A DNA stretch of 64,000 nt from Tsukamurella ocularis (lineage in GTDB: Bacteria > Actinomycetota > Actinomycetes > Mycobacteriales > Mycobacteriaceae). Location: positions 310,001 through 374,000 of the forward strand of contig NZ_JANUCJ010000003.1 of assembly GCF_024807615.1 (NCBI RefSeq), written 5' to 3'. This document shows positions 2,255 through 64,000 of this stretch, piece by piece (position 1 is the stretch's first letter; each line of letters opens with the position of its first letter). The notes beneath the pieces were generated by a model that worked only from the letters and a program-made list of their open reading frames with translations, was not told the DNA's origin and made no database searches. The translations under genes were made by a program, and so were the position numbers.

Positions 2255-2682
2255 TTGACCACCTTCATCGTCATGCGGGAGTCCACGCGGACGATGGCCG
2301 GGTCGCCCATGAGGTGCGTGGTGACCCAGCGCTCGTACGTCGCGAGATCCGCGACGCGCACGCGGATCAGGTAGTCGGGGAGGCCGAACATGCGGCGCAC
2401 CTCGATGACCTCGTCGAACGAGGCGATCCGCGCCTCGAACGCCTCCACCGACGCGCGGTCGTTCGCCCCGAGGTCGGCGTTGATCATGACCTCGAAGCCG
2501 CGGCCCAGCGCCGCGGGGTCGAGGACGGCGGTGTAGCCGGTGATCACCCCGTCGGCCTCCAGGCGGCGCACGCGGCGCAGGCACGGCGCGGGCGTGAGCC
2601 CCACGCGCTGCGCCAGCTCCTGGTTGGTGAGCCGCCCGTCGCACACCAACTCATCGATGATTGCTCGATCGAGTGCATCCAC
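2251..2682 (-). CDS. Lrp/AsnC family transcriptional regulator
   Basis: Amino-acid-responsive regulator of 143 residues: an N-terminal helix-turn-helix (LTNQELAQRVGLTPAPC) followed by a RAM ligand-binding domain. The GTG start at 2682 gives the usual Lrp length and removes a long low-quality extension; a CAATAT hexamer 7 nt before it fits a leaderless transcript. It heads the kinase-dgdA operon and faces azlCD. A 15-bp inverted repeat lies in the shared intergenic region. Lrp-like control of azl genes is known in Bacillus, so regulating both sides is a reasonable inference. Confidence 0.9.
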
Positions 2683-2723
2683 GTCCGAGATATTGCCACG
2701 GGCACCCCCAGTTCGGCCATTTA

Positions 2724-2738
2724 CGCAAGCACATTGCG
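2724..2738. promoter_or_regulatory. Candidate Lrp operator, CGCAA-N5-TTGCG
   Basis: Perfect 5-bp arms spaced by 5 bp in the lrp-azlC intergenic region. Its size matches Lrp/AsnC half-site pairs. It sits about 33 bp before the predicted azlC start and about 50 bp before the lrp start. Confidence 0.5.
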
Positions 2739-2750
2739 CGGAATGAGAAA

Positions 2751-2756
2751 TAGAAT
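2751..2756 (+). promoter_or_regulatory. -10 hexamer of azlC (TAGAAT)
   Basis: TAGAAT followed by 7 nt and then the ATG at 2764, the spacing expected for a leaderless actinobacterial transcript. It argues for the start at 2764 rather than the in-frame ATG at 2743. Confidence 0.5.
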
Positions 2757-2763
2757 TGTTCGC

Positions 2764-3432
2764 ATGGGAGTTCCGTCGAAGGTCGCCGTGGTGCAGCTCG
2801 GCCTGTTCGTGCTCGGCATCGGCCTCGGCGTGGTGGTCACGGGCAACGGCCTGCCGTGGTGGATCGCGCCGGTGCTGTCGATGGCGGTGTACGCGGGCTC
2901 CGTCGAGTTCCTCCTCGCCGGCCTGCTGGCCGCGGCGACCCCGCTCGCCGCGATCGCCGCCACCACGTTCCTCGTGAACTCGCGACACCTGTTCTACGGC
3001 CTCACCTTCCCCCTGGACCGGATCCGCAGCCGGGTCGGGAAGGCGTACGGCGTGTACGCCCTCACCGACGAGGCCTACGCCCTGGTGAGCACGGCACCGT
3101 CGGCCACGATGACGGGAAAAATGATCCTGCGAACCCAGGTCGGCCTGCACGTGGCGTGGGTCGCCGGCTCGCTGGTGGGCGGGCTCGCGGGCGGCGCCTT
3201 CCTGCGCGACGTGCCGGGCGTCGACTTCGTGCTCACCGCGCTGTTCGTGGTGTTGGCGATGGACGCGCACCCGGACCGCACGACGCTCGCGCTCGCGCTG
3301 GCCGCGTGCGCGGTCGCGCTGGCGGCGGCGCCGGGCGCGATGCTGCTCGTCGCGATGGGCGGCTTCGCGGGCCTGCTCGTGGTGCGGCACGTCCTGGCCC
3401 GACGGAACGCGAAGGAGGCGGCGCATGCCTAG
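2764..3432 (+). CDS. azlC: AzlC family branched-chain amino acid exporter, large subunit
   Basis: Integral membrane protein of 222 residues with several hydrophobic segments and the family signature around NSRHLFYGL and ALTDEAYAL. With AzlD it forms a two-component exporter for branched-chain amino acids and analogues. It overlaps azlD by 8 nt. It lies divergent from lrp, and the promoter carries a candidate Lrp site, so induction by intracellular amino acids is likely. Being beside a dialkylglycine decarboxylase hints that the pair may export related non-proteinogenic amino acids; that part is inference. Confidence 0.9.
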   Translation: MGVPSKVAVVQLGLFVLGIGLGVVVTGNGLPWWIAPVLSMAVYAGSVEFLLAGLLAAATPLAAIAATTFLVNSRHLFYGLTFPLDRIRSRVGKAYGVYALTDEAYALVSTAPSATMTGKMILRTQVGLHVAWVAGSLVGGLAGGAFLRDVPGVDFVLTALFVVLAMDAHPDRTTLALALAACAVALAAAPGAMLLVAMGGFAGLLVVRHVLARRNAKEAAHA

Positions 3433-3751
3433 CACCGGATACCTGCTGGCGGGGATCGCGATCGCGGCGGCGGTCACCGTCGCGCTGCGGCTGGCGCCCT
3501 TCGGGCTGGCCTCGGTGCTGCGCGATTCGCCGCTGCTGGCCGACTTCGGGCGATGGATGCCCGTGGGCGCCGTGGTGGTGCTGGCCGTCTACTGCATGGC
3601 ACAGGTCGACTACACCGCGCCGGCGCACGGGATCCCGCAGATCGCGGGCGTCGCGGCGACGGCGCTGGCGCACTGGTGGCGGCGCAACGCGGTGCTGAGC
3701 ATCGTCGCAGGCACGGCGGTGTGCGTCGCACTGAGCTACGCACTGGCGTGA
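3425..3751 (+). CDS. azlD: AzlD family branched-chain amino acid transport protein
   Basis: Small subunit of the AzlCD exporter, 108 residues, with about four hydrophobic helices and the family's RLAPFGL and MPVGAVVVLAVYC segments. Its ATG lies inside the end of azlC (8-nt overlap), so the two are co-translated. The next gene starts 15 nt downstream and may be read through. Confidence 0.88.
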   Translation: MPSTGYLLAGIAIAAAVTVALRLAPFGLASVLRDSPLLADFGRWMPVGAVVVLAVYCMAQVDYTAPAHGIPQIAGVAATALAHWWRRNAVLSIVAGTAVCVALSYALA

Positions 3752-3766
3752 TGGCACCATGAGCTG

Positions 3767-4510
3767 ATGCGCAAGGAGATCGTCACTGCCGGCGACGTTC
3801 GCCTGGCGGTGCAGCACCGCCGCGTGCCGGTGCCGACGGGCCCGCCGGTGCTGCTCATCCACGGCATGGCCGCCGACCACCGGACGTGGCGGCGCACCGT
3901 CCGCGCCCTGCACGCCGCCGGCCGCGACACCGTGACCTACGACCAGCGCGGCCACGGCCGCAGCGACCACAGCGCCGAGTACCTCCTCGACGAGCTCGCC
4001 GCGGACGCCGAGCGGGTCGTGCGGCACGTGGGAGTCGAGACCTTCGACGTGGTCGGGCACTCCCTCGGGGGCCAGGCCGCGTTACGGCTCGCGTGGCGCC
4101 TGCCCGACGGTGTCCGTCGCCTCGTCCTCGAGGAGATGCCTCCGGTGGCGCTCGAGCCCGAGCAGGTCGCGGAGTCGGTGGACCTGCCGCTGACGCCGCG
4201 CCGGGTGTGGCTGGGGATCAAGCAGGTGGTGCAGACGCCGGGCGCCCTGTCGCGGTTCGACAAGACGATGATCGATTCGGTCTCCCCGCAGTTCCAGCCC
4301 GATCCGGCGTGGTGGGACCGGCTCGCCACGACCGGACAGCAGACGCTGGTGATCTCGGGCGGCCCGCGCGACTTCCTGCGCCCCGAGTACCTGCGGCTCG
4401 TCGCCGACGCGCTGCCCCGCGGCGAGTACGCCGAGCTGCGCGGCGGGCACACGGCGCACCGCGAGTCCTCCGCCGCGTTCGCCCGCGCGGTCCTCGAGTT
4501 CCTGCGCTAG
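3767..4510 (+). CDS. Alpha/beta hydrolase
   Basis: Cytoplasmic serine hydrolase of 247 residues. Visible motifs are LLIHGMAADHRTW (oxyanion loop, near residue 30), YDQRGHGRS, the nucleophile elbow GHSLGG near residue 97, and a C-terminal GGHTAHRE that supplies the catalytic His. There is no lid domain or signal peptide. The substrate cannot be told from sequence. It follows azlD by 15 nt, so it is probably in the same transcript, and its stop codon lies in a perfect hairpin. Confidence 0.85.
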   Translation: MRKEIVTAGDVRLAVQHRRVPVPTGPPVLLIHGMAADHRTWRRTVRALHAAGRDTVTYDQRGHGRSDHSAEYLLDELAADAERVVRHVGVETFDVVGHSLGGQAALRLAWRLPDGVRRLVLEEMPPVALEPEQVAESVDLPLTPRRVWLGIKQVVQTPGALSRFDKTMIDSVSPQFQPDPAWWDRLATTGQQTLVISGGPRDFLRPEYLRLVADALPRGEYAELRGGHTAHRESSAAFARAVLEFLR

Positions 4511-62948: not shown

Positions 62949-63563
62949 CTAGACGCCCAGGGCGGCGAGGGCCTTGTCGCGCAGCAGCGCGCGCAGCCGG
63001 GGCTGCGGCAGCGCCGGCAGGCTGGGGGCGGCGTTGATCAGGCCGAAGACGGCGTGCACGACGGCGCGGTTGTCCACCGGGTCGCCGCCGAGCGCGGTGA
63101 GGGCGTCGGTCCAGATCTCGACGTACTGCCGCTGCAGCCGACGCACTCGGCGCGCCGACTCCGGCGCCAACGACCACATGTCGCGGTACTGCACGCGGAT
63201 GAGATCCGGCTCGGAGGCCGCGAAGTCGACGTGGAAGTCGACGAGGTCGTACAGGGCCTGCCGTGGGTCGCCCGCACGCTCCTCCACGACCCGGCGGCCA
63301 CCGTCGTACAGGTACTCGGAGATCTCCACGAGGAGGGCGGCGAGCACGTCCTGCTTGCCCGCGAAGTGGCGGTACATGGCGGGCCCGGAGACGCCCGCCG
63401 CCGCGCCGATGTCCTCGAGGCGCACGCCCGCGAAGCCGCGCTCGGCCATCAGCGCTGCGGCCGCGGCGAGCAGTTCGCGGCGCCGGGCCGCCTTGGCGCG
63501 CTCGCGCGCGGTCCCCGCCTCGGGCCCTCCCGCGCCGGACCGGCGGGTCGTCGGTACCTCCAT
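62949..63563 (-). CDS. TetR family regulator of the leucine-type operon
   Basis: Regulator of 204 residues with helix-turn-helix RRELLAAAAALMAERGFAG, then LEDIGAAAGVSGPAMYRHFAGKQDV, and a TetR_C ligand domain containing FHVDFAASEPDLIRVQYRDMWSL. It sits upstream of accD1 on the same strand, as in the mycobacterial accD1-fadE19 locus (Rv2506 type), and probably responds to an acyl-CoA of the pathway. ATG 63563 is chosen; GTG 63575 is possible. Confidence 0.88.
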   Translation of the reverse strand: MEVPTTRRSGAGGPEAGTARERAKAARRRELLAAAAALMAERGFAGVRLEDIGAAAGVSGPAMYRHFAGKQDVLAALLVEISEYLYDGGRRVVEERAGDPRQALYDLVDFHVDFAASEPDLIRVQYRDMWSLAPESARRVRRLQRQYVEIWTDALTALGGDPVDNRAVVHAVFGLINAAPSLPALPQPRLRALLRDKALAALGV

Positions 63564-63625
63564 GGCGGGCCACACTACTCGGCTTGCCCCGCTAACGACC
63601 CCGTGTCATGCTTGTTCCGCAAGGC

Positions 63626-63782
63626 GCCAATCGTTCGCTGAGGCTCCTTCGCGGAAACAGGCCAGCGACCCCGAACGTCGAGAGACGCCCCGGGTCAGGA
63701 CAGGCGCATCCGGCTTAAGGGTGCTCCCCGATTGGCTCCCGTTCACGGGTTCACGCCGCGAAGTGCTGAAGGTCTGACGTGG
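63626..63782 (+). ncRNA. M-box (ykoK) magnesium riboswitch
   Basis: The conserved M-box blocks appear in order: GAGGCTCCT at 63640-63648, AACGTCGAGAGACG at 63674-63687, GGGTCA at 63692-63697, a TTAAGGGTG segment at about 63715, and GTGCTGAAGGTCT at about 63763. The element folds around Mg2+ and normally represses a downstream Mg2+ transporter or related gene; that gene must be beyond the right edge of the window. On the plus strand, divergent from tetR. Confidence 0.88.
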
Positions 63783-64000
63783 AGGGGCGCACTTTCTTCA
63801 CTCTCCCTCCCGGCGCGCGGCAGTCGAACCGACGGAGGTGATGCAATGCCCGACGACAGTCGTAGTCGATCGCTCGGCGCTTCCCGCATCACCGCGGGAA
63901 GCCGCTGAGCGCACCATGATCCGGGCCGGAGGCCCGCCTCGCCGACGGCGCACCGTCGGCCCCGTCGTACCGCCTCCGTCCCACTGACATCTCCACACCC
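63783..64000 (+). other. M-box leader with short ORF and tandem hairpins
   Basis: A GGAGG site at 63834-63838 precedes ATG 63846, giving a 20-codon Arg/Ser-rich frame that ends in TGA, and also GTG/ATG at 63838-63841, giving a 48-50-codon frame ending VVPPPSH. Hairpins: gcttcccgc/gcgggaagc (63879-63902) and ccgacgg/ccgtcgg (63942-63959). They may be the expression platform of the M-box. The window ends here, so the main gene is not seen. Confidence 0.45.

What the first reader, a model, noticed from the sequence alone, without database searches (positions are those of the whole stretch)
63626..63782. M-box Mg2+ riboswitch at the window edge
All conserved M-box blocks are present in the correct order and spacing, pointing rightwards. 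The controlled gene is off the edge. M-boxes are few per genome and mark magnesium homeostasis genes; in M. tuberculosis they sit before genes other than the usual transporters, so the identity of the downstream gene is of interest.
Basis: partly seen in the sequence, partly recalled or inferred. Interest (0 to 1): 0.7.

Follow-up and report, generated by a model that had tools for sequence, protein, structure and literature searches.

The report
Magnesium riboswitch with conserved mini-gene
A genuine magnesium-sensing RNA switch lies at the window edge; it seems to act on a tiny conserved gene placed before the magnesium-stress gene mgtC and an unusual ABC transporter, and relatives suggest that this tiny gene matters through being translated rather than through the peptide it encodes.

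Summary
The M-box is real: RF00380, 109.2 bits (cut-off 44), window 63623-63791 (+), the only one in this Tsukamurella genome. Past the edge come mgtC, a two-domain ABC permease and an ABC ATPase with PF09821. Between aptamer and mgtC is a 20-codon uORF with a strong Shine-Dalgarno (63834-63908), present at all 15 mgtC-type M-boxes of the genus, an anti-SD able to pair with that SD or with the aptamer's 3' end, and no terminator-like site. This resembles the translational, Rho-linked M-box of the M. tuberculosis pe20 operon (2026), without PE/PPE genes. New here: similar short ORFs follow 94 of 116 family M-boxes, which argues against 'specific for mycobacteria'; only about the first 8 codons are under amino-acid selection; serine there is mostly the rare codon AGT (157 of 229, tails 22 of 249); the permease sits behind an M-box in 24 of 30 family hits. 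Family-wide folding tests and a rut scan were inconclusive. Boldest open reading: the uORF start is a second, ribosome-based Mg2+ sensor.

The parts
63623..63791 (+). M-box (Mg2+ riboswitch) aptamer, RF00380
   Evidence: cmscan 109.2 bits, cut-off 44, whole model
63781..63787 (+). GGAGGGG at the aptamer's 3' end, candidate anti-anti-SD
   Evidence: invariant in 14 aligned genus leaders; pairs with the anti-SD in 97.6% of cells, slid controls 70-91%; role inferred
63798..63810 (+). pyrimidine-rich candidate anti-SD
   Evidence: pairs with the uORF SD in 96.4% of cells, slid controls 40-61%; CCTCC in 13 of 15 genus spacers, 2.6 expected; role inferred
63834..63843 (+). Shine-Dalgarno GGAGGTGATG of the uORF
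   Evidence: invariant in 14 aligned genus leaders; GGAGGTGA found in all 15
63846..63908 (+). uORF, 20 codons, MPDDSRSRSLGASRITAGSR
   Evidence: related ORF at all 15 mgtC-type M-boxes of the genus; only one copy of the SD-start pattern in the genome
63872..63910 (+). hairpin over the second half of the uORF, stop codon included
   Evidence: 92.8% of cells paired, slid 30-50%, three pairs with double changes, reached by 43 of 500 shuffles: moderate
63911..64000 (+). start of the stretch between the uORF and mgtC, which runs past the window edge. Beyond it (locus L002; L002 position + 62499 = window position): mgtC L002 1563-2285, ABC permease 2282-4036, ABC ATPase with PF09821 4064-5362
   Evidence: PF02308 and PF21770; PF00528 twice; PF00005 and PF09821; PF02308 and PF09821 match once each in the genome

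Best explanation
The M-box gates translation of a short uORF and, through it, expression of an mgtC-ABC transporter operon. At high Mg2+ the folded aptamer holds its own 3' GGAGGGG; the anti-SD is then free to cover the SD of the uORF, the uORF is not translated, and Rho ends transcription before mgtC. At low Mg2+ the aptamer's 3' end takes up the anti-SD, the SD opens, ribosomes translate the uORF and open the hairpin over its second half, and transcription goes on into mgtC, permease and ATPase. Shown here: the aptamer, the uORF with its SD and its conservation, both alternative pairings as complementarity, the gene order. Inferred, mainly from the published M. tuberculosis pe20 case: the direction of the switch, the part of Rho, and that translation rather than the peptide counts.
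For: RF00380 109.2 bits. uORF and SD at 15 of 15 mgtC-type M-boxes of the genus. Both alternative helices kept; CCTCC in 13 of 15 genus spacers against 2.6 expected; in 67 family leaders the same stretch pairs with both partners slightly better than in shuffles (15.0 against 13.6, Wilcoxon p 8e-6, single p<=0.05 in 11 of 67). No terminator-like site in the leader, whereas 11 of 14 M-boxes read outside the family have one. Tail of the uORF free of amino-acid selection. Published relative with reporter and Rho-depletion data (PMC12810186).
Against: Generic folding over 67 family leaders shows no clear difference in SD openness with or without the aptamer's 3' end (more open in 17, less in 13), and spacer-to-start pairing is no better than in shuffles (p<0.05 in 1 of 67). 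The two switch helices show no double changes, since one side is invariant or nearly so. The consensus fold also pairs the aptamer's 3' strand with the uORF start. A rut-like score after the uORF beats all 30 shuffles in only 1 of 15 leaders. In the published case the main termination site lies upstream of the uORF.
Confidence: 0.6

Rival explanations
1. Second sensor: the Pro/Asp-rich first codons of the uORF make the ribosome pause or drop off according to Mg2+, as in E. coli MgtL and Salmonella MgtQ, so that the leader reads Mg2+ twice.
For: Acidic residue within two of a proline in residues 2-9 in 75 of 89 neutrally picked distinct uORFs, against 13 of 109 downstream ORF N-termini. Only about the first 8 codons are under amino-acid selection. 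MgtL EPDP (PMC11282234 passages); MgtQ Asp2 and Glu5 (PMC8092293 abstract).
Against: Runs are short: an adjacent Pro/acidic or acidic/acidic pair is in 29 of 71 of the motif-picked peptides. It does not by itself explain the AGT codon. In MgtL drop-off closes the Rho site; here the sign is unknown.
Confidence: 0.15
2. The uORF encodes a peptide that works in trans, for example on the transporter, as proposed for Rv1805A.
For: Codons 2-8 have pN/pS 0.16-0.26 in four groups; the paper proposes a peptide role.
Against: Beyond the first 7-8 codons pN/pS is 0.90-1.59 in four groups and pN 0.305 against pS 0.161 in the genus. Length varies. The authors saw no biofilm effect of Rv1805A in M. smegmatis.
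Confidence: 0.12
3. Classical M-box: an intrinsic terminator decides, and the uORF is incidental.
For: 11 of 14 M-boxes read outside the family have a terminator-like hairpin.
Against: None in this leader; in the family 26 of 116 against 13 in one shuffle. The uORF and SD are conserved.
Confidence: 0.05
4. The pyrimidine tract is a Rho-loading site shielded or exposed by the switch; SD masking plays no part.
For: The authors of the pe20 study name this as an alternative.
Against: The tract keeps complementarity to the SD in 96.4% of cells of the genus alignment.
Confidence: 0.15

Closest known systems
M. tuberculosis pe20 (Rv1806) M-box with uORF2/Rv1805A (D'Halluin et al. 2026, PMC12810186; outline and parts 1-4 of 6 read)
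   Same: M-box aptamer, SD-like sequence at its 3' end, anti-SD, second SD with a conserved short uORF, no intrinsic terminator; mgtC in the operon.
   Different: Here mgtC follows the uORF directly, then an ABC transporter; no PE/PPE genes between. I did not look for a counterpart of the pe20 uORF1. Rv1805A itself was not aligned.
B. subtilis ykoK (mgtE) M-box
   Same: Same aptamer family, RF00380.
   Different: Intrinsic terminator there (as told in PMC12810186); none found here.
Salmonella mgtCBR leader (mgtM, mgtP) and mgtQ; E. coli mgtL
   Same: Short ORFs that control mgtC or Mg2+ transporter genes; Pro and acidic codons near the start of mgtL and acidic ones in mgtQ (PMC3641672 abstract; PMC8092293 abstract; PMC11282234 passages).
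   Different: Not M-box leaders (recalled); no sequence relation shown; ATP and proline signals not considered here.

Membership tests
M-box / Magnesium riboswitch (RF00380) | covariance score over the gathering cut-off, whole model | tested here: met
   109.2 bits against 44, positions 1-169
M-box / Magnesium riboswitch (RF00380) | upstream of a Mg2+-related gene on the same strand | tested here: met
   mgtC
M-box / Magnesium riboswitch (RF00380) | Mg2+-dependent change of structure and expression | not testable with these tools
   needs in-line probing or reporters
Translational, uORF-linked M-box (pe20 type) | short uORF with strong SD after the aptamer | tested here: met
   15 of 15 in the genus; 94 of 116 in the family by a rule blind to the peptide
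Translational, uORF-linked M-box (pe20 type) | anti-SD that can pair with the SD and with the aptamer's 3' end | tested here: inconclusive
   met as complementarity in the genus; general folding tests over the family do not show it
Translational, uORF-linked M-box (pe20 type) | no intrinsic terminator | tested here: met
   none found in L002 1000-1700
Translational, uORF-linked M-box (pe20 type) | Rho-dependent termination in the leader | tested here: inconclusive
   rut-like score beats all 30 shuffles in 1 of 15 leaders
MgtL/MgtQ-type ribosome-destabilising leader ORF | acidic and proline residues at the N-terminus | tested here: met
   75 of 89 against 13 of 109; the runs are short
MgtL/MgtQ-type ribosome-destabilising leader ORF | Mg2+-dependent ribosome drop-off | not testable with these tools
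   needs in vitro translation

The most novel reading that the evidence does not exclude
The leader holds two Mg2+ sensors in series: the aptamer, which opens the SD of the uORF, and the first eight or so codons of the uORF (Pro/Asp-rich, with the rare serine codon AGT nearly fixed), on which the ribosome pauses or drops off according to Mg2+. The peptide is a by-product. This would hold for most uORF-bearing M-boxes of the family, and the ABC transporter without substrate-binding protein would be a Mg2+-linked transporter of a kind not yet described.
Probability: 0.13. Interest if true: 0.82.

Novelty: new variant of a known kind. Interest (0 to 1): 0.5.

Why it matters
It puts the translational M-box/uORF layout, described in 2026 from M. 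tuberculosis, in a genus where mgtC follows the uORF directly and no PE/PPE genes intervene, which is what one would expect of the ancestral layout that the authors speculated about. It gives their open question, what the uORF does, a sharp test: the tail shows no amino-acid selection, so translation of the first codons should matter, not the peptide. It also ties an uncharacterised ABC transporter to the M-box regulon.

Tried and rejected
Intrinsic terminator in this leader: none found. Pairing of the near-invariant AGT codon with the aptamer's 3' end as the reason for its conservation: not supported, mean score 11.5 against 12.7 shuffled, p<=0.05 in 0 of 67. Family-wide duplex and accessibility tests of the anti-SD: inconclusive or negative. 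rut scan: inconclusive. Rfam families beside ten permease loci (L131, a family member, and L132-L140 from outside the family): no match. M-box beside the permease outside the family: none of the 14 genomes outside the family with a permease match had an M-box match. Second small ORF after the uORF: a start codon within 14 nt in 7 of the 14 loci listed, and the ORF has fewer than 15 codons in 4 of these 7; not pursued. Solved relatives of the permease: only weak matches, to a nitrate permease and to CmpB. An M-box-free copy of the uORF in this genome: the pattern search found only this one. Consensus promoter upstream: none by the sigma-70 scan, though CGGCTTG and a block around TGTCATGCT are conserved in most genus sequences.

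Rows left out: alignment A1 has 14 of the 15 genus leaders (L016 left out as divergent). pN/pS in the genus used 9 of 15 uORFs; L011, whose uORF is identical to L001's, and L007, L008, L012, L016 and L018, which have indels or another length, were left out. The motif-based AGT count used 75 of 116 leaders, 67 distinct starts; the peptide-blind pick kept 94 and dropped 22 (14 without GGAGGT plus start, 3 too short, 5 too long). In the terminator count outside the family 14 of 15 fetched loci were used (L154, clipped by its contig, left out), and the fetched loci were the best-scoring ones, not all M-boxes found outside the family. The AGT control in ordinary SD-led ORFs gave 1 of 16 (window) and 1 of 30 (L019-L116) at codons 2-9, but 7 of 19 in L120-L127, seven of which are corresponding Tsukamurella neighbourhoods.

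Full report
Observation. cmscan finds RF00380 at window 63623-63791 (+) with 109.2 bits (cut-off 44, E 1.9e-23), the whole model, not cut off. A search of the genome finds no other. The window lies on contig C3 of an unnamed 4.31 Mb genome. In named genomes the mgtC protein finds nine relatives: seven Tsukamurella loci at 87-98% identity, Nocardia panacis at 65% and a metagenome-assembled genome at 47%; so this is a Tsukamurella, species not determined. 15 of 16 genomes searched in the genus carry an M-box, two of them two.

What it controls. Past the edge (L002) the first large gene is mgtC (PF02308 and the MgtC/SapB C-terminal domain), then, with overlapping stop and start, a permease with two BPD_transp_1 stretches, then an ABC ATPase with PF09821. 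PF02308 and PF09821 each match once in this genome. The next gene on the strand that I scanned is an M23 peptidase; I saw no substrate-binding protein among the genes scanned, and genes further on were not scanned. In the genus 13 of 15 mgtC-type loci have the permease after mgtC; G007 and G009 lack it.

The uORF. Between aptamer and mgtC lie GGAGGTGATG (63834-63843) and a 20-codon ORF (63846-63908, MPDDSRSRSLGASRITAGSR). All 15 mgtC-type M-boxes of the genus have GGAGGTGA and a related ORF of 18-27 codons. In the alignment of 14 of these leaders the SD is invariant. A pyrimidine-rich stretch (63798-63810) pairs with the SD in 96.4% of cells (slid controls 40-61%) and with GGAGGGG at the aptamer's end in 97.6% (slid 70-91%); neither helix has double changes. 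CCTCC is in 13 of 15 genus spacers, 2.6 expected from shuffles. A hairpin over the second half of the uORF pairs in 92.8% of cells (slid 30-50%), with three pairs that changed on both sides, a number reached by 43 of 500 shuffles: moderate support. No terminator-like site was found.

Results against the mechanism. With general folding, the SD is more open with the aptamer's 3' end in 17 of 67 family leaders, less open in 13, and spacer-to-start pairing beats shuffles in 1 of 67. A test that asks one stretch to pair with both partners gives a small excess (15.0 against 13.6, Wilcoxon p 8e-6, single p<=0.05 in 11 of 67). The consensus fold also pairs the aptamer's 3' strand with the uORF start, without double changes. 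A rut-like score after the uORF beats all 30 shuffles in 1 of 15 leaders. The mechanism therefore rests mainly on anatomy and on the published relative.

Published relative. D'Halluin et al. 2026 (PMC12810186; outline and parts 1-4 of 6 read) report for the M. tuberculosis pe20 M-box a translational platform (SD1 at the aptamer's end, anti-SD, SD2 of uORF2/Rv1805A) together with Rho-dependent termination, to their knowledge the first for an M-box. They call the peptide specific for mycobacteria, leave its role open, note that the main termination site lies upstream of it, and speculate that a pe/ppe element entered the locus. The Tsukamurella leader has corresponding parts with mgtC directly after the uORF. 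My searches of the open-access library did not list a paper on such a uORF outside mycobacteria; subscription papers and preprints are not covered.

Family-wide. 72 of 301 family genomes searched have an M-box, 116 M-boxes in all, 17 of them in the genus; I fetched all 116 and examined them by script. By a rule blind to the peptide, 94 of 116 are followed by GGAGGT, a start codon and an ORF of 8-60 codons. Related N-terminal motifs (MSPGDSPYP, MPDDSHS, MPDGS, MDDPPSR) occur in many genera. In g10 and g19 some M-boxes have mgtC directly at that SD, without a uORF. The first large coding-like ORF downstream falls into groups: mgtC 29, P-type cation ATPase 15, Nramp 13, PPE 13, class I tRNA synthetase 7, MgtE 7, ABC permease 5, smaller groups and single ORFs 20, none 7 (group names checked with Pfam on one member each, and for mgtC by phmmer). 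Of 14 M-boxes read outside the family 11 have a terminator-like hairpin, 2.2 expected; in the family 26 of 116, 13 in one round of shuffles.

What is selected in the uORF. In the genus (9 of 15 uORFs) codons 2-7 have pN 0.102 and pS 0.201, codons 8-20 pN 0.305 and pS 0.161; mgtC as control has pN/pS 0.13. In four other groups codons 2-8 have pN/pS 0.16-0.26 and the rest 0.90-1.59. In the peptide-blind set serine at codons 2-9 is AGT in 157 of 229, later in 22 of 249. AGT is 8 of 245 serine codons in ten ORFs of this genome and 125 of 2096 in downstream ORFs of the family loci. At the serine of the [DGNR]S motif it is AGT in 66 of 67 distinct starts from 12 genera. Ordinary SD-led ORFs give 1 of 16 and 1 of 30 at codons 2-9, and 7 of 19 in a third, partly redundant set. 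Pairing with the aptamer's end does not explain it. I have no tested explanation for the AGT codon.

Second-sensor reading. An acidic residue within two of a proline in residues 2-9 occurs in 75 of 89 distinct uORFs, against 13 of 109 downstream ORF N-termini. This resembles the destabilising starts of MgtL (EPDP; PMC11282234, passages) and MgtQ (Asp2 and Glu5; PMC8092293, abstract). Adjacent Pro/acidic or acidic pairs are in 29 of 71 of the motif-picked peptides, so the resemblance is partial, and it is not a test.

The transporter. The permease has 30 matches in 29 of 301 family genomes; 24 of the 30 lie within about 1.1 kb downstream of an M-box on the same strand. The six others are in G011, G133, G160, G259, G275 and G299; G011, a fragmented assembly, has no M-box match. 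Five M-boxes lead to it without mgtC between. Outside the family 14 sampled genomes have a match and none of these has an M-box match. Its substrate is unknown; a role in Mg2+ is inferred from position only.

Verdict. The leader behind it is a new variant of the recently described translational M-box; the selection pattern of the uORF and the link to the ABC transporter are what is worth following.

Noticed in passing
L118 and L119 (G003, G014; the M-boxes of L003 and L004): Two Tsukamurella genomes have a second M-box with a uORF of another type (MPSGDSPYSRPG...), its SD inside a long hairpin (seen by eye), followed by a small ORF with the motif TPQERHNLR.
   Followed up: partly
L027, L046, L058, L062, L066, L080, L083 and others, downstream of the uORF: A small protein of about 45-70 aa with a motif like LTPQERxNLR...P.AV..ASLG follows the uORF of a number of family M-boxes; one member (L080) has no Pfam match.
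   Followed up: partly
G036:C12:304631-305222 and G077:C50:34910-35483: Two M-boxes stand back to back, divergent, 244 and 226 bases apart, in two genomes of genus g22.
   Followed up: no
L077, L094, L095, just after the aptamer: Where other members have ATG, GTG or TTG after the SD, these have ATT followed by the usual AGT codon; ATT may be the start codon.
   Followed up: no
L132-L139 (genomes outside the family): The two-domain permease is followed by an ABC ATPase at varied places, with neighbours such as a pyrophosphatase-like, a HisB-like or a TrkA-like ORF (my reading of the translations) and no Rfam match nearby.
   Followed up: partly
window 63916-63987 (+): A second small ORF (MIRAGGPPRRRRTVGPVVPPPSH) starts 7 bases after the uORF stop; kept in only part of the genus.
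   Followed up: partly
window 62949-63575 (-): A divergent TetR-type regulator, nearest to the SACE_7040 family but under its cut-off, starts about 50 bases upstream of the M-box.
   Followed up: no
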